In this document: one piece after another, positions 39,713 to 55,459 of the stretch | Layout of the letters: each line of letters opens with the position of its first letter | Numbering within the stretch: position 1 is the first letter of the stretch | Assembly (NCBI RefSeq): GCF_031851795.1 | Contig: NZ_CP134696.1 | Location: forward strand, 2,527,001-2,591,000 | From: Pontibacter sp. G13 | GTDB lineage: Bacteria > Bacteroidota > Bacteroidia > J057 | Length of the DNA: 64,000 nt | Direction of reading: 5' to 3' | Made by a program: the position numbers and the translations under genes | The notes under the pieces: generated by a model | The model's database searches: none | Told to the model about the DNA's origin: nothing | The model's input: only the letters and a program-made list of their open reading frames with translations

Positions 39713-39742
39713 CATACATATCCAGTCATACCCAAATAGAAC

Positions 39743-39772
39743 AGGGCTCACCCCAAATATCGAGTGAGCCCT
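39743..39772 (-). terminator. intrinsic terminator after the transglutaminase-like gene
   Basis: AGGGCTCAC/GTGAGCCCT perfect 9 bp stem, 26 bases after the minus-strand stop codon, followed by GTTCTATTT on that strand. Confidence 0.75.
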
Positions 39773-39798
39773 AAGATATGAGGAAAAAGGTCGATGGA

Positions 39799-41328
39799 TC
39801 AATATGCCACGACATTGGCCATCTGTCCATGCGTCTCGGGAAGCGACATCCCGTAATCCGCATTGATATAGGTCGGATCACAGATGGTGTATTTCTTGTT
39901 GCGGAACATCACATGATCCCCATTGACAGGTCCAGAGAACTTCACCGCAGTGGCCGCATGGCCCGGGTACATGAGGCCAATTACCTCCAGCCCGAGAATC
40001 TCCTGCACCAAATAGGCAAACAGCACAGAGCGGTCCTCGCAGTCGGAATATGGGAAGAACAACGTCTCCTCTGCAAATAGGTATTTCTCACCGCCAAACT
40101 GCTGATGATCGGTCTGATAAGCCAATCCCGTCTGAACAAATCTGAGGAGAAAATTCACGGACTCGGCCTCCTTGCTGCGGTTGCCGGTCGGCTGTAAATC
40201 TGCAACCGCCTCCTTGAGCGAGGCCACCAACGAGTTGCGGCAAGCCTCAGATACAGGCGCCGACATGTAGACGCTCAGATCCACAAACGGATAGGTCTTG
40301 TAGAATTCGAGTAAGTTGGCGTCTAGCTCGTATGGGATGTCATAGTTCTGGCCGGCGTATGAAAAGGAAACCGATTTGCGGATCGTCCGAGAAGCCAATC
40401 TGGGAGCAGCGGGCATACGCAGGTCCATGATCCGGTCGGCCTCAGGGTACTTCTGGGCGAACACTCGCGCTTGAATCAGGTCAATATCTCCTCCATCCAA
40501 ATCAATCGCATAGAACTTCTGGTCCTTGTTGCGAAGGAAAGTCTTGCCATAGAGAATCTGGCGAGTCGGCATCATGAGATACACATGGCCACCCTCGTAG
40601 GCAACGGTGGAAATGTACCCTGACTTGGAGAGCATAAACCACGAGAAGACCACGCGTTCGTTGGGTTGCGACGGGAAAATCTGGTGTGCGATCTGATTGA
40701 TCATTTGGGCGTACCCCCAATCGTTGACTTGGAGGCGAGCCGCTTCCCGGGTGATTTGGTACAGCAGCAATTCATACCGCGAATCTTCCAGCTGTTCCCA
40801 AGCGAGTGCGAGGGTTTTCTCATTGACCAATCCTTCCAGATCCACTTCCATTTCCGGATCGATCTTGAGTTCGAGGCTTTCGCCGAAATATGAGGCATTG
40901 GTCTCGGTCCCCAAATCTGTGAGCGCATCCGTTACAAACTCATCTTGCACAGGCTCCGGAACATCTGGGGCAGGGACCGCTGCTTTGGCAGCCAAAGGCG
41001 CCACATCCGATTGAGGAGAAAGGGGCACCACATCCAGTTGCCGCTCTTCGGGCGTTTCGCGGATGTCATTGGCGGGCTCGTAGACAAATGGCACATCGGG
41101 ATCTTGCCCTTCGGGGAATTCTCCTTCTGTGAAGCTCCTTTTGAGCCACATCCGCCGCATTTGATTGGCGAACCGTATTTCTACCCGTTGGTCTTGGGCT
41201 TGTTGTTTTTGCTTGACGCGTTCTTCTTGCTCGCGGAGCATTTCTTCCCACGTTTTTTGCGCGAAGGCATTGGGGCCGACAGTTGTCAAACCCAAGAGAC
41301 ACACGAGCGATATCCACCAGTACTTCAT
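39799..41328 (-). CDS. exported transglutaminase-like protein
   Basis: 509 residues. Signal peptide (WWISLVCLLGLTTVGPNAFAQ), then a Glu/Gln-rich helix, a Pro/Ala-rich linker (80-140) and two ordered regions. The C-terminal domain has a Cys-His-Asp triad in the transglutaminase order: Cys430 in YSDCEDRSVLF, His457 in PGHAATAV and Asp484 in ICDPTY. Proteins of this superfamily in bacteria act as peptidases or amide-forming enzymes. It is the last gene of a four-gene minus-strand cluster of exported proteins (caspase, LPP20-like, DUF4384, this one). The gap to the preceding gene is 60 bases. Activity is plausible because all three residues are present. Confidence 0.8.
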   Translation of the reverse strand: MKYWWISLVCLLGLTTVGPNAFAQKTWEEMLREQEERVKQKQQAQDQRVEIRFANQMRRMWLKRSFTEGEFPEGQDPDVPFVYEPANDIRETPEERQLDVVPLSPQSDVAPLAAKAAVPAPDVPEPVQDEFVTDALTDLGTETNASYFGESLELKIDPEMEVDLEGLVNEKTLALAWEQLEDSRYELLLYQITREAARLQVNDWGYAQMINQIAHQIFPSQPNERVVFSWFMLSKSGYISTVAYEGGHVYLMMPTRQILYGKTFLRNKDQKFYAIDLDGGDIDLIQARVFAQKYPEADRIMDLRMPAAPRLASRTIRKSVSFSYAGQNYDIPYELDANLLEFYKTYPFVDLSVYMSAPVSEACRNSLVASLKEAVADLQPTGNRSKEAESVNFLLRFVQTGLAYQTDHQQFGGEKYLFAEETLFFPYSDCEDRSVLFAYLVQEILGLEVIGLMYPGHAATAVKFSGPVNGDHVMFRNKKYTICDPTYINADYGMSLPETHGQMANVVAY

Positions 41329-41388
41329 GAGGTCAAATTATTGCTGGACTAAACAAGGAATTCGATTAGATAGCCACGTAGGTTGAGT

Positions 41389-42333
41389 CTACTCCTTCCG
41401 AATGGTAATGTCTACCCGCTGAATTTGGAGATCGTCGTTATACACACGTTGCGAGGCCATCCAAGCTTGGAACTTGGTATTGGACAGCTGCATGGGCATT
41501 TCGTAGGTTTTGTCATTACCTTCCACGACGAATGCCTCATCATCCCGGGCTTCCAGGAGTGGTTTGGTGATCTCCTTCTTGCTGAAGATGACATACATGG
41601 CGTTCAGCTCTTCGGGTTCGAAGGCGTACATTTCGTATTCATCGACATAGGCCTTCAGACGTTCAGGGGCTTGATCTTTGGAGAAAAGGAAATAGGTTTT
41701 ATCGCCTTTTACCGGAAATCCATTGTACATTCCACGGGGCATCTCACGATAAGGAAGAATCCGTTGGGAGATTTCCTGATCGGCTAGATAAATGGAAATG
41801 AATCCGTCTACGGGAGCACGGAAAGCCACATAAAAGGATTCTCCATCCTGAAATACCGTAGTGGCACATTGGGCGCTTTCGCAATCCAAGGGTTGGATAT
41901 CTAGCGTAATCTGAGGCTGTACAAATTCTTTGACTCGGCCTTTGATCTCGCATTGTACCCAAAGCTCATCATCCACAAACTTTCGGTCGCAAGATTCATC
42001 GAGCGTTTCGATCCATTCTCCGTTGACAAACGTTTCCGCCATCATATTGAAGATCTGGGTGGTCTCGGTCATCTCTCCAGTATCCACATTCTTGATGTAG
42101 GTGGAATTGCCTTGAATGATCACTTGACCAAATGCCTTTTCAATGGCATCGATCATGGCGATCCTTTTGCATTGGTCACAAGCATCGCCATAGGTCATAT
42201 CGTCCTCGATCCGCATTTGATATTTGGCTTGGGACTTTTTGACTTTTTGTGCTTGCACGGCAGGAAGAGAGAGACAGATCATGGCCAAGAGTGCCAGCAA
42301 GCGATTTCCGAAAGGTAGGTTGATATGTATCAT
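41389..42333 (-). CDS. exported protein with FlgT-like N-terminal and DUF4384 domains
   Basis: 314 residues from the ATG at 42333, which opens the leader LLALLAMICLSLPAVQAQ; twelve upstream codons are in frame. Residues about 30-140 resemble the LPP20/FlgT N-terminal fold (KRIAMIDAIEKAFGQVI, FVNGEWIETLDE). Residues about 165-240 match DUF4384 (FYVAFRAPVDGFISIYLAD, RILPY). DUF4384 often occurs in the same proteins or operons as caspase-fold domains in bacteria, and a caspase gene lies two genes upstream here. The role is unknown, possibly scaffolding in the periplasm. Confidence 0.75.
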   Translation of the reverse strand: MIHINLPFGNRLLALLAMICLSLPAVQAQKVKKSQAKYQMRIEDDMTYGDACDQCKRIAMIDAIEKAFGQVIIQGNSTYIKNVDTGEMTETTQIFNMMAETFVNGEWIETLDESCDRKFVDDELWVQCEIKGRVKEFVQPQITLDIQPLDCESAQCATTVFQDGESFYVAFRAPVDGFISIYLADQEISQRILPYREMPRGMYNGFPVKGDKTYFLFSKDQAPERLKAYVDEYEMYAFEPEELNAMYVIFSKKEITKPLLEARDDEAFVVEGNDKTYEMPMQLSNTKFQAWMASQRVYNDDLQIQRVDITIRKE

Positions 42334-42617
42334 GAGCACAAAAAAATCACGCCTGAGTAATATGAACAAATCCCAAAATCGGAACGCGCAGAAAGATTTC
42401 CTATCCTAGAAGCTGGTAGGCCCTTTCTTGCGATGGCATGAGATGGATTCCAGCTTCGTACACACTTAATCCCGACAGGATGAAATAAAGAATGGGAATG
42501 AACGGCAGGTGAAACGACATAGGCCGATCGACACATGACCATCCATTCCCATTGCTGGGCCCTCAAACGAGAGCAGGTTCATTTATGCTGAGTGATTTTC
42601 AATCACTTTGGGCGTTC

Positions 42618-43334
42618 CTAGCGGTCGAAGAGACGGTTGATCTCGTCGATCAAGTTGTCAGCTTCGTCTTCCAATTGAGCGCGAGCCTGAGCTTCCATCG
42701 CACGTTCAGCAGCGGCATAAGCTTCCTCAGAGTTGTAGTACAATTTGAGGTTGACTTCGATGTCCTTGCGGCCAACGTTACGCATCACTTTGAATCCAGG
42801 GCGAACGTATCCGAGGTGCTGTACGATGTAGTTTTTGCTTCCCAATACAACTTTGGTCAAAGACTCACCGGTTTCGCGGTCGATCTGTTCGTTGGCGATT
42901 TTGGACTCGATGATGGCGTTTACTTCGTTGGAGATTTGGCCAGCCATTTGAAGCTTGGCTACTTCCATCGCTTGCAATTCAGCAGCAGACTGCGTTTTAC
43001 CTACACCGTTTCCATCCGCGAAGATGTAAACTGGAGATCCATCAGGATTTTCTTGCAATTGCTTCACCCAGATTTTCTCGAGCTGCTTGTCCATCGGCAA
43101 GCTACCGGGGAAAATCACATAATCCGCTTTGCGGTACTTTTTGGCTTCTTTGCGAGCTTCTTTGACGGCCTTGCTGCGAACTTCTTTCAGCAGGGACTTT
43201 TCCTCCTTATTCCAAGCTTTGCGGACCTTTTTGGGGTTCTGGCGCTCAGGAGAACTCAATTGTGCGTAGGTATTGCTAACGGCGAAAGTCATCATGGCCA
43301 CCAGCAGGAAAGAAAGAAGGTTCTTGATTTTCAT
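42618..43334 (-). CDS. exported LPP20-like protein
   Basis: 238 residues. Signal peptide (LLSFLLVAMMTFAVSNTYAQ) without a lipobox Cys. A Lys/Arg-rich helix (residues 33-70) follows. The ~130-residue core has the LPP20-like pattern, with GVGKTQSAAELQAMEVAKLQMA and a C-terminal acidic helix (EDEADNLIDEINRLF). The GVGKT stretch resembles a Walker A motif but lacks the preceding strand and other P-loop parts, so nucleotide binding is unlikely. It sits between the caspase gene (83 bases away) and the DUF4384 gene (284 bases away). Confidence 0.7.
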   Translation of the reverse strand: MKIKNLLSFLLVAMMTFAVSNTYAQLSSPERQNPKKVRKAWNKEEKSLLKEVRSKAVKEARKEAKKYRKADYVIFPGSLPMDKQLEKIWVKQLQENPDGSPVYIFADGNGVGKTQSAAELQAMEVAKLQMAGQISNEVNAIIESKIANEQIDRETGESLTKVVLGSKNYIVQHLGYVRPGFKVMRNVGRKDIEVNLKLYYNSEEAYAAAERAMEAQARAQLEDEADNLIDEINRLFDR

Positions 43335-43417
43335 GACTCCAAGTTTAGAAGTTGATCAGTTGGTTCAATGTTAAATGTAAGTCTGTCAGAATCCAGATAT
43401 TCACTGGTTGGCCGATC

Positions 43418-45964
43418 TTAGTAAGACAAGATCACCCGGGAATCTCTTCCGTACACTTCCGGCGTTTGGGTTCGATTTTTCAATCGTCGGGCCATGGACG
43501 GTACCTCTTCGTAGAGGTAAGATTTCAATTCGTATAACGTCAGTTGACGGTCTCGATTCGCATTAGCTGCTCCCTGCAAACCCTTCAAAAAGTAGTAAGT
43601 GAAGAGCGAGTGCCGCTGGGCTGGATACCAGGAGGCGATCTGAGTTCCCGTAGCGGAGGTGAATACCATCGCATTTGGGTCGCTCAACACTCCGGTTTCC
43701 GATTTGATCCGCACCAGAGATGCAGCAGGGATCAGGGTTCCCTTATCCGAAGTTCCGCTAAAGCAGGCGTCGATCACGACAGTTAGTTGCTTGTAAGGGA
43801 TCTTCGCTAGGTTTTCGTACAAGGTGTTGATCGCATAGCCGTTGAATCTCACCAAGGTAGGATCGCAGTCGACTGGCACGAAATACCCTTCTTCTGTACT
43901 CAAATCAGGTGAACCGTGTCCACTGTAGAAGATAAAGACCTCTGATTCCTCAGGCTTCACCAGGTTGTACAATCTCGCCTTGTGGTCGCCTTTGGTACCG
44001 AAAATACCGTTGAAATCTGCTTGGGTTGCATTGGGTACGAAAATGATATTTTCCTCCATAAACCCGAAACTTTCGACCAAATATTTCCGCATGCTCGCAG
44101 CATCTTGCAAGGCAAAATCTACAGGGGGAACGTCACGGTTCTCGTAATCTCTATTTCCAATGATGACAGCAATGGCGTTTTCTCGGCGACGGATCGCTCT
44201 TGGAAGGCCCATGTCTACATCACTTGTCAGTTGTATCTCTTGAATGTCCTCCGCCTCAATAGGTGCGGCATTGATCACGACCCGATCCGCCAACTCCAAT
44301 TGTTGGTTGATGGAAACAGACATGACCTTTTCCGAGCCATACTGGCCTGTTTGATCCTTGATCACTGCCTTGATGGGCACCATCTCGCGATCATAGCGGC
44401 GGTTGGTAAAGAATTCGAAGTCAATGATCCGGCTTTCTCCGGCAGACAAACTGCCCAATTGGAACATATCATCCGCAGCGGGGAAGACATTCTGAGGGAG
44501 CATCATCTGGACCTGCACATTCTCGGCAGTTCCACGGCCTGTATTCTGAACTGCGAATTTGACCGTAATCGGTACTCCGAGTTGCATGCGTCCTCCGGAG
44601 TGGGAACCAAATTGGTGATCCACGACTTCCAATGCAGGAGGCTGATATGCCAAGGTTGGAATGCTGATTCGCAGTACGCCCGCATCAAACCCAAATTTTT
44701 CACGGACCTGAATTTCAAATTCTGCTTGACCTGTCTCAAGCTGATTGCCACCTGTTACCCGGATTTTTACATCCTGATATCGATTTGGAGGCAAAGTCCC
44801 GAGTTGTCTTTCCGCCTGGAATTCCAATCCACGCAATCCACTGGTTTCTGACACTTGAACTTGCAGTTCTTCTGCGTATCCGGGGCCTTCATTTTCCAGT
44901 CGGAACACGATATAGGTAGATTCACCCGCGTCGATCTGATTGTTGCCATTGACATCCTCAAAGCTGAGTCCCTGTCCTGACAATCTCGTTGGGCTTGAAG
45001 GACGACCACTTGGATTGAGGTCAGGCTCTACATCTTCGAAAATATCCCAATATCCTCCCCAGTCGTCATCTTGCCCTTGCTGAGGCGTTTGAGTGACTTC
45101 CGGCCATTCACGATCGGGAGTTTGGCGAGGAGCAGAAGCGGCCCCTTGTCCCAATTGGTAGCGAATGCCACGCTTGGCGAGCAACGCCTGAAAAGAATGG
45201 GTGTGGGAGATGGGGATGAAATTGATGTCGCGCTCTAGCCAGTGATAGGTGCGATATCCCATCTGGAATGCTTTTTCCAAATAATGGACGGCATTTTCGG
45301 TATCCCCAATCAGGCCATAAAGTCCAGCTACGTTGTACAAGATTGCCGCGTGATCTTTCCGATTGGATGAACCAGAAGCATGCAAGATGTTCTTGGTCAC
45401 TCGAACTGCACTCTGTGTTTCGTTCATCAGCAGTTTGGCGAACGCAGATTGGATCGAATTGGAATTGGTCAGGCGTAGCACCTCTTGCAGATCCCGGTGT
45501 GCGAGGTTGCGTTGGCGGAAAACCATCTTGCGGATTTTGCCACGGAAATACCACGAATCAGGGATATCGGAGCGGTATCCGATGGCAGCGCTGAAATCTT
45601 TGACCGCATAGTCATACTCTTGCAGAATGTAGAAGCACAAACCACGCTTGTAATAGATGCGCGCCAATCTCGAAGCACTCGGTGAGTCGTAGTACTTCAG
45701 GGCCTTGGTGTAATCCTCAATGGCCTGTTCGTATTGCCCTGCCGAAAAGTAGGCAGATGCACGGTTGTTGTAGGTGGTCCCACTGCGGGGATTTAAGCGC
45801 AGATGCCGAGAATATCTCGAAATCAGCTGCGGGCTACTCTCTCCTGTTCGAGCTTGGGAGAAACCAGTCTCCTCGTAGGAAGCCCGTCCAATTTGAGCAT
45901 GAACAGGCAAGGTCAAAATCAGCAGAATAGCAAGTTGAAACCAGGCGTAAAACGGCTTTTTCAT
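43418..45964 (-). CDS. exported TPR-caspase (peptidase C14-like) protein
   Basis: 848 residues. The ATG at 45964 opens a signal peptide (AWFQLAILLILTLPVHAQ); a frame continuing to 46135 has none. Order: TPR repeats (about 45-230, e.g. NNRASAYFSAGQYEQAIEDY), a linker, two or three CARDB-like beta-sandwich domains (330-560, EDVNGNNQIDAGESTYIVF), then a caspase-fold domain with the catalytic dyad His683 in YSGHGS and Cys734 in DACFSG. The peptidase looks intact and, being exported, would act in the periplasm or at the surface. The specificity pocket cannot be read. It is the first gene of the four-gene cluster. Confidence 0.88.
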   Translation of the reverse strand: MKKPFYAWFQLAILLILTLPVHAQIGRASYEETGFSQARTGESSPQLISRYSRHLRLNPRSGTTYNNRASAYFSAGQYEQAIEDYTKALKYYDSPSASRLARIYYKRGLCFYILQEYDYAVKDFSAAIGYRSDIPDSWYFRGKIRKMVFRQRNLAHRDLQEVLRLTNSNSIQSAFAKLLMNETQSAVRVTKNILHASGSSNRKDHAAILYNVAGLYGLIGDTENAVHYLEKAFQMGYRTYHWLERDINFIPISHTHSFQALLAKRGIRYQLGQGAASAPRQTPDREWPEVTQTPQQGQDDDWGGYWDIFEDVEPDLNPSGRPSSPTRLSGQGLSFEDVNGNNQIDAGESTYIVFRLENEGPGYAEELQVQVSETSGLRGLEFQAERQLGTLPPNRYQDVKIRVTGGNQLETGQAEFEIQVREKFGFDAGVLRISIPTLAYQPPALEVVDHQFGSHSGGRMQLGVPITVKFAVQNTGRGTAENVQVQMMLPQNVFPAADDMFQLGSLSAGESRIIDFEFFTNRRYDREMVPIKAVIKDQTGQYGSEKVMSVSINQQLELADRVVINAAPIEAEDIQEIQLTSDVDMGLPRAIRRRENAIAVIIGNRDYENRDVPPVDFALQDAASMRKYLVESFGFMEENIIFVPNATQADFNGIFGTKGDHKARLYNLVKPEESEVFIFYSGHGSPDLSTEEGYFVPVDCDPTLVRFNGYAINTLYENLAKIPYKQLTVVIDACFSGTSDKGTLIPAASLVRIKSETGVLSDPNAMVFTSATGTQIASWYPAQRHSLFTYYFLKGLQGAANANRDRQLTLYELKSYLYEEVPSMARRLKNRTQTPEVYGRDSRVILSY

Positions 45965-51358: not shown

Positions 51359-54300
51359 ATGAGACTGCTACTGTTATCCTTTATTCTCACTACCTGCCTA
51401 GCTTCTCAGGCTTGGGCCCAACAGGTAGATTTTGAAAAGATCACCACACAAGATGGACTTTCCCACAGCACCGTATTTTCAATTTGTCAGGACGGTGCTG
51501 GCTATCTGTGGTTTGGTACTAGAGATGGGCTCAATCGGTACGATAGTTATGATATCCAAACCTACTACCAAGGAGATCGAGGATTGCTCCATGATGAAAT
51601 CATCGCGCTAGAAGCTGTAGGAGATACAGGTCTGTATATTGGCACTCCGAAGGGCGCTAGTTATTACGACTATGCGAGAGACACTTTTCTGACCATTTCC
51701 TATAACCAAAAATCCCTGGGTCGAGTCAATGACATCAAAGTCATCGATCCTTTCGGAGTATTTATTTGCACCAAAAATGGAGTTTACCGGGTCTGGGGAG
51801 CTGATTCGGTCACATTGGTTACTGATAAATTCTCGGCCCAACGGATCGCAAGATTTGAAGCAGGCCTAGTGTGGGTCGCCCGAAACAACGGCAGACTGAT
51901 CCTTATGGATCACCAAGGCCAGATCGTACGGCGCTTGTCCCCACAGAAAAATGGGTCCAATAAATCTCGCGTACCGCAGCTGAGATTAAATGCACTATAC
52001 ACAGATGCGGAAAACCGTACTTGGCTAGCCACTAATCAGGGTTTATGGATATACTCCTTAGAAGCGGATAACTTTGTGAAAGTGGACTGGAATCCAGGCG
52101 GGAACGAGCTAGAAAGTCAATTTATCCGGTCGTTGACTTCTGACGAAGATGGTGACCTATGGATAGGGACAGAAGCTGGGTTGTACATTTTCAACCCGAA
52201 TTCGGGAAAGACCGAGCACTACAATCAAGGATTTTCCAACCAGCCCAGCACGCTCAGTGACAAAGCGGTTTATAGTACCTATCGAAGCCGAGAGGGGATC
52301 ATCTGGATCGGCACCTATTTTGGCGGGGTCAATTATTCGAAGCCTTCTGAGAAGACCTTTCACAAAATGATGGCCGATGGAGGGATCAACGGTCTCGGCG
52401 GGAAGGCTGTCAGCGATATGATCATGTCAGCCAAAAATCAGCTGTGGATCGGCACTGAAGATGGAGGAATCACCATCATCGACCCAAAGACCCAACAGAA
52501 GCGATATCTGAAACATGATCCCCAAGACCCCTACAGCCTCTCATCCAACAATGTACTTTCGCTTCATCAAGATCGACAAGGAAATGTATGGGTAGGCAAT
52601 TTCATAGGAGGTTTGAACCGTTATGACCCTTCCTCAAAGCGATTTTATCACTACCTCCCACAAGGCAAATCCCATCAGCGCATGAGTAAGGACGTTTTTG
52701 CGCTGTTTCAGGACCAACAAGATCGAATGTGGATAGGCACCCGAGGAGGACTATTTCAATACGATTACGATCAGGATACTTTGATGCCCGCTTGGCCCAA
52801 GATTTTTGGAAAAAGATTCATTCAGGACATTGGCCAAGATCGCTCCGGAGATTTATGGTTTTGTACCCTTGGAAGGGGATTGTATCGGTATGTCCAGTCA
52901 CAGGACACGATGATTCTTTACCAGAAATCGGCATATCCCGGATTAAAGACCAACATGCTCCTCAGCTTTTTCGAAGATAGCCGAGGCCAAATTTGGCTAG
53001 GAACCTCCAGAGGGGGAGCTGTCGTATTCGATCCTCAACAGGAGGAATTCACCACTTATGGGGTAGAGGAAGGACTGACTGACAACAATGTGCACCAAAT
53101 TCAGGAAGATAAACAAGGCCGGATATGGCTCTCCACCAATCGGGGATTATTCATTTACAGCCCTGACCTGGATCGGTTTTCATCCGCCAACATGAGCTAC
53201 AGCCTCCCTAGTCATCAATTCAACCTCAGGTCCTCTCTTTCGCTAGATGATGGAACCCTCATGTTCGGTACAGTCAACGGTCTCTGCTACTTTCACCCAG
53301 ATAGCATTTCTCTCGCCCAAAGTGAGCCAAATCTCCACTTCACAGGACTCCGATTGTTTTCGGAACCTATCTCCCCCCAAGCTGACGGAATCCTCCAACA
53401 GCATATCGATTTCACGGATTCATTGGTGGTCGGATATTCACAAAACGTATTGGGGTTTGACTTCACAGCAATCGATCACCTTTCCCCCGGTAATTTGCAC
53501 TATGCATATTATTTGGAAGGATTTGAGAATCAATGGAATTACGTGGCAGATGAACGAAAAGCCACGTACACCAATCTCTCACCCGGTCAATACATATTGC
53601 ATCTACAAGCAAGCCTGAATCCAAAAGGGGATGCGATCGCTCAAAGAAGCCTCGTGCTTACGGTCCTTCCCCCTTGGTGGCTGACTCGGTGGGCCATTTG
53701 GGGATACATCCTCTTGTTGGGTTTGATTCTATTCGCCTATGCCCGCTTTTCTCGATTTTTGAATCAGCAACGATTGAATCTCAAGGTCGAACGAATGGAA
53801 AAGGAGCAAGTCAAAGAATTGAATCAGCATAAAATCAACTTCTTTACCTACATCACGCACGAATTCAAAACCCCTCTGACGCTCATCATTTCTCGACTGG
53901 ACAAAGTCTTGGATGTCGAATCAGATGAACATGCGCGCAGCCAAATCATCCCAATCAGACGTCAAGCCGCCCGACTTCAGCATTTGATTACTCAGCTGAT
54001 GGAATTCAGAAGGGTTGAATCCGACCATGCACAGGTCCGATTGGCACAGGGAGATTTGGTCCTGTTTGTCAGGGATACAATTGAGGCGTTTACTCCCCTG
54101 TATGTTCAAAAGCAGATCAACTACCGGTTTGAATGCTCACTAGATGTTTTTCATGCCTATTTTGATGCGGATAAATTGACCAAAATCCTGACCAATATTT
54201 TGTCCAATGCCATCAAGAATACCGGAGAATTGGGCGAGATCAACGTGTTGATGCGCATTGAACAAGATTCAGATCAATCTCAAGCGGCAAGTTGCTCCAT

Positions 54301-55459
54301 TGAGGTGTTGGATACGGGAATAGGGATGGTACAAAGTGAATCCGACAAAGTATTCATGCCTTTTTACCAAGCAGATCCAACCACGAATAAGGGTTCTGGC
54401 ATTGGCTTGGCCTTGGTGAATACCCTCATCAAATTATTGAAAGGGAAACTAACCATCGAAAGTAGTCCCGAACAAGGCACCCTAGTTCGTATTGAGCTAC
54501 CGATTCAATTATCCCAAGGTCAGGAGCCTTTCGGAACTGGGATGATTCGCGGCAATAAATCACTAGTGATCGATGAAGGTCTGTTTGAGGAAGAGGTTCT
54601 GCTCCCCGCCACCTCGGAAAAATCCAAACCGGAGATCTTAATTGTTGAGGACAACGAAGATTTGCTACGGTTTCTAGCGAGTCACTTTGGCGCTCAATAC
54701 CGTGTACAGACAGCTTCCAATGGGAAGAAAGCGCTGGAAAAAATCGCGAAACAACATCCCGATTTTATTCTGAGCGATGTCATGATGCCTGAGATGGGAG
54801 GTCTGGAATTGTGCCAAAAACTCAAGGAAAATGAAGCGACCTCTCATATTCCATTGGTCCTGCTCTCTGCACAGTCAGAGGTTGAGTACAAATTGAAAGG
54901 ACTCAATCAGGGAGCAGATGCCTATCTCCCAAAGCCGTTCAATTTGCGCGAAGCAGAGTTGATTATCAAAAACCTGCTAGCTACTCGTCAAAGTCTCAGA
55001 GAGTTTTTCCTACAATTTGGGCATTGGCATGGAGACGAAATTCCCACCAACAACCGGGATCAAGCCTTCCTCAGAAACATCCTGTCCCATGTCAAAAGCC
55101 ATTTCAGCGATCCGGATTTTACTGTTGCCAAACTCGCGAAGGAGGTCGGGATTAGCCGTTCGTTGCTCCATCAAAAATTGAGGAAAATTGCAGATATGAC
55201 GGCTTCTGATCTGATCAAGACCATCCGCCTTCAAAATGGTGCCCGACTCTTGGCAGATGGATACAATGTATCTGAAGCGGCTTATGATTCAGGATTTTCC
55301 GATCCCGGATATTTTGGCAGATTATTCAAGAAGCACTTTGGGATCAATCCTAGCGAATATTCCAAAGAAGGGGCCCACACAGCCTTGCGAGATATTCCCA
55401 TCATTGAATCCGCTGACTCCCTGCTGAATATTCCTTCCCCTTTGCAAGAAAAATCCTAA
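51359..55459 (+). CDS. hybrid two-component system regulator (HTCS)
   Basis: 1366 residues. Signal peptide (LLLSFILTTCLASQAWAQ). About 14 reg_prop propeller blades (WFGTRDGLNRY, LWIGTEAGLYI and so on), then Y_Y_Y (YYLEGFENQWNYV). A membrane helix (WAIWGYILLLGLILFAYA) is followed by HisKA with His834 in ITHEFKTPLTLI, an HATPase with DTGIGM and GSGIGLALV, a receiver with phospho-acceptor Asp1140 in ILSDVMMPEMGG, and an AraC-type HTH (FTVAKLAKEVGISRS, DSGFSDPGYFGRLF). It is the single-chain sensor-regulator typical of Bacteroidota polysaccharide loci. It should sense a periplasmic oligosaccharide and activate the neighbouring genes, including the SusC/D pair. Confidence 0.95.
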   Translation: MRLLLLSFILTTCLASQAWAQQVDFEKITTQDGLSHSTVFSICQDGAGYLWFGTRDGLNRYDSYDIQTYYQGDRGLLHDEIIALEAVGDTGLYIGTPKGASYYDYARDTFLTISYNQKSLGRVNDIKVIDPFGVFICTKNGVYRVWGADSVTLVTDKFSAQRIARFEAGLVWVARNNGRLILMDHQGQIVRRLSPQKNGSNKSRVPQLRLNALYTDAENRTWLATNQGLWIYSLEADNFVKVDWNPGGNELESQFIRSLTSDEDGDLWIGTEAGLYIFNPNSGKTEHYNQGFSNQPSTLSDKAVYSTYRSREGIIWIGTYFGGVNYSKPSEKTFHKMMADGGINGLGGKAVSDMIMSAKNQLWIGTEDGGITIIDPKTQQKRYLKHDPQDPYSLSSNNVLSLHQDRQGNVWVGNFIGGLNRYDPSSKRFYHYLPQGKSHQRMSKDVFALFQDQQDRMWIGTRGGLFQYDYDQDTLMPAWPKIFGKRFIQDIGQDRSGDLWFCTLGRGLYRYVQSQDTMILYQKSAYPGLKTNMLLSFFEDSRGQIWLGTSRGGAVVFDPQQEEFTTYGVEEGLTDNNVHQIQEDKQGRIWLSTNRGLFIYSPDLDRFSSANMSYSLPSHQFNLRSSLSLDDGTLMFGTVNGLCYFHPDSISLAQSEPNLHFTGLRLFSEPISPQADGILQQHIDFTDSLVVGYSQNVLGFDFTAIDHLSPGNLHYAYYLEGFENQWNYVADERKATYTNLSPGQYILHLQASLNPKGDAIAQRSLVLTVLPPWWLTRWAIWGYILLLGLILFAYARFSRFLNQQRLNLKVERMEKEQVKELNQHKINFFTYITHEFKTPLTLIISRLDKVLDVESDEHARSQIIPIRRQAARLQHLITQLMEFRRVESDHAQVRLAQGDLVLFVRDTIEAFTPLYVQKQINYRFECSLDVFHAYFDADKLTKILTNILSNAIKNTGELGEINVLMRIEQDSDQSQAASCSIEVLDTGIGMVQSESDKVFMPFYQADPTTNKGSGIGLALVNTLIKLLKGKLTIESSPEQGTLVRIELPIQLSQGQEPFGTGMIRGNKSLVIDEGLFEEEVLLPATSEKSKPEILIVEDNEDLLRFLASHFGAQYRVQTASNGKKALEKIAKQHPDFILSDVMMPEMGGLELCQKLKENEATSHIPLVLLSAQSEVEYKLKGLNQGADAYLPKPFNLREAELIIKNLLATRQSLREFFLQFGHWHGDEIPTNNRDQAFLRNILSHVKSHFSDPDFTVAKLAKEVGISRSLLHQKLRKIADMTASDLIKTIRLQNGARLLADGYNVSEAAYDSGFSDPGYFGRLFKKHFGINPSEYSKEGAHTALRDIPIIESADSLLNIPSPLQEKS

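What the first reader, a model, noticed from the sequence alone, without database searches (positions are those of the whole stretch)
39799..45964. Four-gene exported cluster: caspase, LPP20-like, DUF4384, transglutaminase-like
Four minus-strand genes, all with signal peptides ending in AQ, encode a TPR-caspase with an intact His683/Cys734 dyad, an LPP20-like protein, a FlgT/DUF4384-like protein and a transglutaminase-like protein with an intact Cys430/His457/Asp484 triad. Two different Cys-based catalytic folds in one exported module, with two envelope-type scaffolds, suggest a periplasmic proteolytic or cross-linking pathway. I know of no described system with this composition.
Basis: inference. 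Interest (0 to 1): 0.74.

Follow-up and report, generated by a model that had tools for sequence, protein, structure and literature searches.

The report
Conserved exported caspase four-gene module
Four neighbouring genes for exported proteins (a caspase-like protease, a second cysteine enzyme resembling the periplasmic protease LapG, and two envelope-type proteins) form a conserved set seen again in distant Bacteroidota, so they probably work together as a cell-envelope protease system that I could not find described.

Summary
Observation confirmed. Four minus-strand genes (39799-45964) encode a TPR-CARDB caspase (His683/Cys734), an LPP20-fold protein, a DUF4384-type protein and a LapG/transglutaminase-fold protein (Cys430/His457/Asp484). 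All have signal peptides; the 'AQ' ends are the phylum-wide Bacteroidetes Q-rule. The order caspase-LPP20-DUF4384-TG recurs in 8 of 13 family genomes (one copy cut by a contig end). A scan of ~85,000 genomes with the LPP20-like profile gave 52 loci, mostly uncultured Bacteroidota: 40 also hold DUF4384, 38 a caspase, 20 the TG-like gene, 13 all four. Cluster caspases largely form one lineage, but N-terminal scaffolds are swapped (TPR-CARDB, WD40, CARDB). The LPP20 assignment rests on a predicted structure (nearest Tip-alpha, HP1454, Lpp20); the TG-like enzyme is closest to LapG; 'FlgT' is weakly supported. The TG-like gene also occurs alone in ~15% of sampled Bacteroidota genomes, so it is an associated part, not obligatory. 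Best reading: an envelope proteolysis module with an Arg/Lys-specific orthocaspase and a LapG-like enzyme on an LPP20/DUF4384 platform. Cleavage, substrates, order of action and phenotype are inferred. The composition was not found in open-access literature.

The parts
43418..45964 (-). Exported caspase homologue, 848 aa: signal peptide (..PVHAQ), TPR region, CARDB-type Ig-like region, C-terminal Peptidase_C14 domain; His683/Cys734 dyad, Asp621 and Asp732 of the predicted basic-residue pocket
42618..43334 (-). LPP20/Tip-alpha (SHS2/dodecin-like) fold protein, 238 aa, signal peptide ..TYAQ (no lipobox), basic N-terminal helix 38-72
41389..42333 (-). DUF4384-type protein, 314 aa, signal peptide ..VQAQ; N-terminal half of uncertain relation (FlgT_N/LPP20 hits only marginal)
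39799..41328 (-). LapG/transglutaminase-fold cysteine enzyme, 509 aa, signal peptide ..AFAQ; Cys430, His457, Asp484
39742..39773 (-). Terminator-like stem (12 pairs, 7 G-C) and T-rich tail just after the last gene; no minus-strand terminator-like site between the four genes
   Evidence: consensus scan only; 3 sites found against 6.3 expected, so weak

Best explanation
The four genes encode one cell-envelope (periplasmic or outer-membrane-associated) regulated proteolysis module. SHOWN: conserved co-localisation, signal peptides, intact catalytic residues, folds as predicted. INFERRED: the LPP20-fold and DUF4384 proteins, which occur together in the relatives, form the platform; the caspase is the signal-triggered protease, cleaving after Arg/Lys, with its N-terminal TPR/CARDB or WD40 scaffold recognising the trigger or client; the LapG-like enzyme is a second protease acting on envelope or surface proteins. 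The Lys/Arg-rich N-terminal helix of the LPP20-like partner is the most obvious candidate caspase site inside the module. The likely result is release or remodelling of envelope or surface proteins on a signal, as LapG does for adhesins, rather than a cytoplasmic death response.
For: Same order and strand in 8 of 13 family genomes (one contig ends inside the TG-like gene). LPP20-like and DUF4384-like genes occur in the same 11 of 40 genomes. In 52 LPP20 loci: DUF4384 in 40 (median gap 30 bp), caspase in 38, TG-like in 20, always on the LPP20 strand; only these four families recur widely among the neighbours. Against about one TG-like gene per 24 Mb in the phylum sample (my estimate), chance gives well under one TG-like gene in the 586 kb of loci. 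Of 42 cluster caspases, 37 fall in one clade with two others. Scaffolds differ within one cluster type: WD40 in L066, TPR-CARDB in the window. Asp621 and Asp732 are invariant in 13 of 13 rows and fit the two Asp that hold basic residues in metacaspases (PMC6426788). LapG match Z 10.7. LPP20 helix 38-72 is 36% Lys+Arg against 13% for the rest, in 55 homologues.
Against: No expression, localisation or activity data. A 280-bp gap separates LPP20 and DUF4384 genes in the window. The TG-like gene stands alone in many genomes, with no LPP20, DUF4384 or caspase neighbours in 20 loci read. Some module loci carry additional caspases on the other strand or degenerate caspase domains. The basic helix may simply bind peptidoglycan, lipid or a partner. 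The LapG match covers about 143 residues at 4.1 A and 12% identity; no LapG substrate or LapD partner was looked for systematically.
Confidence: 0.5

Rival explanations
1. Programmed envelope lysis or anti-phage device: the caspase, once triggered, activates an LPP20/DUF4384 assembly that damages the envelope and kills the cell.
For: Prokaryotic caspases are often proposed for programmed cell death (PMC3501461); patchy distribution (11 of 40 relatives, 1 of 296 phylum genomes); swapped N-terminal scaffolds would suit sensors.
Against: All parts have signal peptides, unlike the described cytoplasmic caspase defence effectors (own knowledge); only a weak generic caspase match in PADLOC (1.9e-6); flanking genes in the window are metabolic, sulfatase and regulatory, not a defence island; strict order in the family argues for stable retention.
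Confidence: 0.15
2. Envelope assembly or cross-linking machine: LPP20/DUF4384 proteins form a structural ring or disk and the TG-like enzyme cross-links proteins, with the caspase as a maturation protease.
For: FlgP, Lpp20 and FlgT share the SHS2-like fold, and FlgP and FlgT form envelope rings (PMC12222027); the TG-like model also matches transglutaminases (Z about 8).
Against: Best match is a protease (LapG, Z 10.7); the insertion after the main helix in the LPP20-like model is helical (residues 153-173), not the ring-forming beta-hairpin described for FlgP.
Confidence: 0.15
3. Neighbouring but functionally independent genes: LPP20-DUF4384-caspase is one unit, and the TG-like gene is a separate, widespread Bacteroidota envelope gene that merely sits beside it in some lineages.
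For: TG-like gene in 45 of 296 genomes and in 20 loci without the others; LPP20-DUF4384-caspase without TG in G017 and G021.
Against: TG-like genes are found beside LPP20 in several different arrangements in distant loci (LPP20-TG-DUF4384 in L102/L106, LPP20-TG in L104/L118/L127/L129, DUF4384-x-x-caspase-TG in L119/L121/L125), always on the same strand (20 of 20), which points to repeated association.
Confidence: 0.2

Closest known systems
Prokaryotic caspase homologues (orthocaspases / bacterial metacaspases, Peptidase_C14)
   Same: Peptidase_C14 domain with His/Cys dyad and the two pocket Asp; WD40 and DUF4384 as companion domains are reported in cyanobacterial orthocaspases (PMC7475262); operons with metacaspases are described (PMC3501461)
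   Different: Exported, TPR-CARDB or WD40 scaffold, and tied to separate LPP20-, DUF4384- and LapG-fold genes; that operon type is not in the papers searched
LapG periplasmic cysteine protease of the Lap adhesin system
   Same: Best structural match (4u65_E Z 10.7, 143 residues, rmsd 4.1; 4fgq LapG Z 9.4); Cys-His-Asp triad; exported
   Different: About 350 extra N-terminal residues, 12% identity, no LapD/LapA genes in the cluster; neighbours are caspase, LPP20 and DUF4384 genes
Tip-alpha / Lpp20 / HP1454 of Helicobacter pylori; FlgP and FlgT of flagellar motors (SHS2/dodecin-like fold)
   Same: Predicted beta-alpha-beta-beta-alpha core; the first seven rows of the structural list are this group (Z 6.7-7.8)
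   Different: Pfam LPP20 does not match; mostly signal-peptidase-I rather than lipoprotein; long basic N-terminal helix; helical instead of beta-hairpin insertion; no flagellar context
DUF4384 proteins (PF14326)
   Same: 26 of 44 family members match the Pfam model, best 2.2e-6
   Different: Window protein itself is below threshold; separate exported protein, not fused to a caspase or kinase

Membership tests
Peptidase_C14 caspase homologue (orthocaspase type) | Peptidase_C14 domain over curated cut-off | tested here: met
   58.7 bits against cut-off 21.4
Peptidase_C14 caspase homologue (orthocaspase type) | Catalytic His and Cys | tested here: met
   H683 and C734, 13 of 13 rows; 44 of 50 and 45 of 48 aligned domains in distant loci
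Peptidase_C14 caspase homologue (orthocaspase type) | Two acidic residues of the basic-P1 pocket | tested here: met
   D621 and D732 invariant in 13 rows; correspondence to TbMC2 Asp95/Asp211 is by motif position (PMC6426788), not by structure
Peptidase_C14 caspase homologue (orthocaspase type) | Proteolytic activity after Arg/Lys | not testable with these tools
   needs recombinant protein
LPP20 lipoprotein family (PF02169) | Pfam model match | tested here: not met
   no hit in P0002 and LPP20 not among the 25 families listed for the 55 members
LPP20 lipoprotein family (PF02169) | Lipobox cysteine | tested here: not met
   window protein ends its signal peptide in YAQ; 44 of 55 homologues show a signal-peptidase-I/Gln pattern by a crude motif scan, a few (L101, L141) look like lipoproteins
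SHS2/dodecin-like fold group (Tip-alpha, Lpp20, FlgP, FlgT) | Fold | tested here: met
   model pLDDT 90; 3guq Z 7.8 (rmsd 3.9, 130 residues), 5ok8 Z 7.3 (4.7, 110), 4kzs Z 6.7 (2.3, 81), ahead of unrelated rows at 5.4 and lower; Z under 8, so fold only
DUF4384 (PF14326) | Pfam model match | tested here: inconclusive
   window protein no hit; 26 of 44 homologues match at E up to 0.1, best 2.2e-6
FlgT | FlgT_N domain match | tested here: inconclusive
   1 of 44 members at 0.034
Transglutaminase-like / LapG superfamily | Papain-like fold with Cys-His-Asp triad | tested here: met
   model pLDDT 87.5; LapG entries Z 9.0-10.7, TglA 8.9, PNGase 8.7, TG3 8.3; triad conservation; Transglut_core in 7 of 42 members, best 0.0016
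Lap adhesin-release system (LapA/LapD/LapG) | LapD receptor and LapA-type adhesin genes beside LapG | tested here: not met
   the flanking window genes scanned by Pfam and the recurring neighbour families show none next to the module; the rest of the genome was not searched
Known anti-phage caspase systems (PADLOC) | Defence-system model match | tested here: inconclusive
   only the generic caspase model at 1.9e-6; other three proteins none or chance-level
Type IX secreted proteins | C-terminal sorting domain | tested here: not met
   no T9SS tail in the four proteins, while the neighbouring LamG proteins have Por_Secre_tail

The most novel reading that the evidence does not exclude
An undescribed bacterial envelope system in which a signal-sensing caspase and a LapG-like cysteine protease form a periplasmic proteolytic cascade on an LPP20/DUF4384 platform, with exchangeable recognition scaffolds, spread across uncultured Bacteroidota: a caspase pathway that works outside the cytoplasm.
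Probability: 0.25. Interest if true: 0.85.

Novelty: new variant of a known kind. Interest (0 to 1): 0.62.

Why it matters
Functions of prokaryotic caspases are mostly unknown and are usually discussed as cytoplasmic cell death or defence. A caspase lineage kept together with the same exported partners across Bacteroidota gives a concrete, testable set of partners and candidate substrates, and suggests that one branch of bacterial caspases works in the cell envelope. It would also give DUF4384- and LPP20-type proteins of unknown role a functional context.

Tried and rejected
Chance adjacency: rejected by order conservation and by recurrence in distant loci. AQ signal-peptide ends as a special shared export signal: rejected, this is the Q-rule (PMC5837995). 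LPP20-like and DUF4384-like proteins as paralogues: hhalign aligned only the signal-peptide region (probability 34%). Type IX export: no C-terminal sorting domain. Defence island: not supported by flanks. Sequence search of PDB with the LPP20, DUF4384 and TG profiles gave nothing useful. Neighbours of stand-alone TG-like genes gave no shared partner beyond close relatives. Family PF02169 searched in the own genome and controls rang nowhere, so it says nothing.
Full report
Observation. Gaps are 83, about 280 and 60 bases. A terminator-like stem (39773-39742) follows the last gene and no minus-strand one lies between the genes, but such sites are no more common than in shuffled DNA. Flanking genes are GNAT acetyltransferases, a GntP permease, a sulfatase and LamG proteins with T9SS tails.

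Domains. The caspase has TPR, CARDB and Peptidase_C14 regions. His683 and Cys734, and also Asp621 and Asp732, are identical in all 13 aligned rows; the two Asp sit where metacaspases hold basic substrate residues (PMC6426788), so Arg/Lys specificity is predicted. The LPP20-like protein has no Pfam LPP20 match, but an AlphaFold2 model (pLDDT 90) finds Tip-alpha, HP1454 and Lpp20 of Helicobacter first (Z 6.7-7.8, below the level at which a fold match is firm by itself, but ahead of unrelated rows). FlgP and FlgT share this SHS2/dodecin-like fold (PMC12222027). In FlgP the ring is built by a beta-hairpin inserted after the helix; here the insertion is helical, so ring formation is open. The DUF4384 assignment rests on 26 of 44 homologues; FlgT is marginal. 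The TG-like model (pLDDT 87.5) is closest to the periplasmic protease LapG (Z 10.7), then TglA, PNGase and transglutaminases. Cys430 and His457 are identical in 42 of 42 rows, Asp484 in 36 with Glu in 5.

Signal peptides. The common 'AQ' ends follow the Bacteroidetes Q-rule, which applies to most signal-peptidase-I substrates of the phylum (PMC5837995, PMC10653852), so they show export, not a shared special route. None of the four carries a T9SS sorting domain.

Close relatives. Among 40 related genomes, LPP20-like genes occur in 11 and DUF4384-like genes in the same 11 (plus one marginal hit). Eight of 13 family members, the window's genome included, have caspase-LPP20-DUF4384-TG contiguous on one strand, at roughly 42-64% identity for most pairs; one of these contigs ends inside the TG-like gene. 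In three other-family genomes and in a second copy in G006 the LPP20-DUF4384 pair occurs without TG; its caspase is adjacent in all but G019, where the nearest caspase lies on another contig.

Distant relatives. One scan of genome contigs with the LPP20-like profile gave 52 loci, nearly all metagenome-assembled Bacteroidota. DUF4384 is present in 40 (median gap 30 bp), a caspase in 38, TG in 20 (always on the LPP20 strand), all four in 13, although many contigs are short. Arrangements differ: LPP20-DUF4384-WD40 caspase; LPP20-DUF4384-x-x-CARDB caspase-TG; LPP20-TG(with beta-propeller)-DUF4384; LPP20-TG with caspases opposite. Only these four families recur widely among the neighbours, which marks the limits of the module. 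In an even sample of 296 phylum genomes the LPP20-like gene was found only in the window's genome, so the module is patchy and concentrated in uncultured lineages.

Caspase lineage. In a tree of 55 caspase domains, 37 of 42 cluster caspases share one supported clade with two others: the window genome's own paralogue and the G019 caspase. The outsiders are opposite-strand or degenerate copies. The comparison set is small and was found by similarity, so this shows clustering, not exclusive descent. N-terminal scaffolds change within that lineage, even within the same four-gene cluster (WD40 in L066, TPR-CARDB in the window).

The TG-like gene alone. It is found in 45 of 296 phylum genomes, and 20 such loci show no LPP20, DUF4384 or caspase beside it. 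It is an associated component with an independent life, not an obligatory part.

Mechanism. The best-supported reading is an envelope proteolysis module: a platform of LPP20-fold and DUF4384 proteins, a scaffolded caspase as the regulated protease, and a LapG-like second cysteine enzyme. LapG itself releases surface adhesins (PMC4694147, PMC3032545), which is the model for the output. The LPP20-like proteins carry a helix with 36% Lys+Arg (13% in the rest) in 55 homologues, a plausible target for a protease with Arg/Lys preference. Co-localisation, export signals and residues are shown; cleavage, order of action, platform and output are inferred.

Literature. Metacaspase operons were surveyed in 2012, with 70 of 217 operons of unknown function and 28 metacaspases in Haliscomenobacter (PMC3501461); DUF4384 and WD40 are known companions of orthocaspases (PMC7475262, PMC6426788). 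No paper found combines caspase with LPP20 and DUF4384 or describes this module. Only open-access text was searched.

Noticed in passing
L108:11256-12149, L125:10604-11428, L131:5034-6098, L146:8087-8833: Exported proteins beside the module share an N-terminal region of about 100 residues ('NVDF..VITYDL'), joined to different C-terminal parts (an FGE-sulfatase-like domain, a DUF5683-like tail) and also linked to some caspases; a possible fifth component in distant loci.
   Followed up: partly
L111:8737-10416, L131:8603-10279, L136:6250-7977, L124, L128: Proteins with two caspase segments next to the LPP20-like gene; the first domain has Lys in place of the catalytic His, so it looks like a pseudo-caspase.
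   Followed up: partly
L102:5602-8223, L106, L118, L127, L129: Long TG-like proteins (about 875 aa); two scanned ones (L102, L118) carry a C-terminal SBBP beta-propeller region.
   Followed up: partly
L117, L122: LPP20-DUF4384 loci filed under Thalassobius and Thalassovita metagenome bins with 32-37% GC; probably mis-binned Bacteroidota.
   Followed up: no
window 51359-55459: A 1366-aa hybrid two-component system protein (Reg_prop propeller, Y_Y_Y, histidine kinase, receiver, AraC-type HTH) next to the sulfatase/LamG genes.
   Followed up: no
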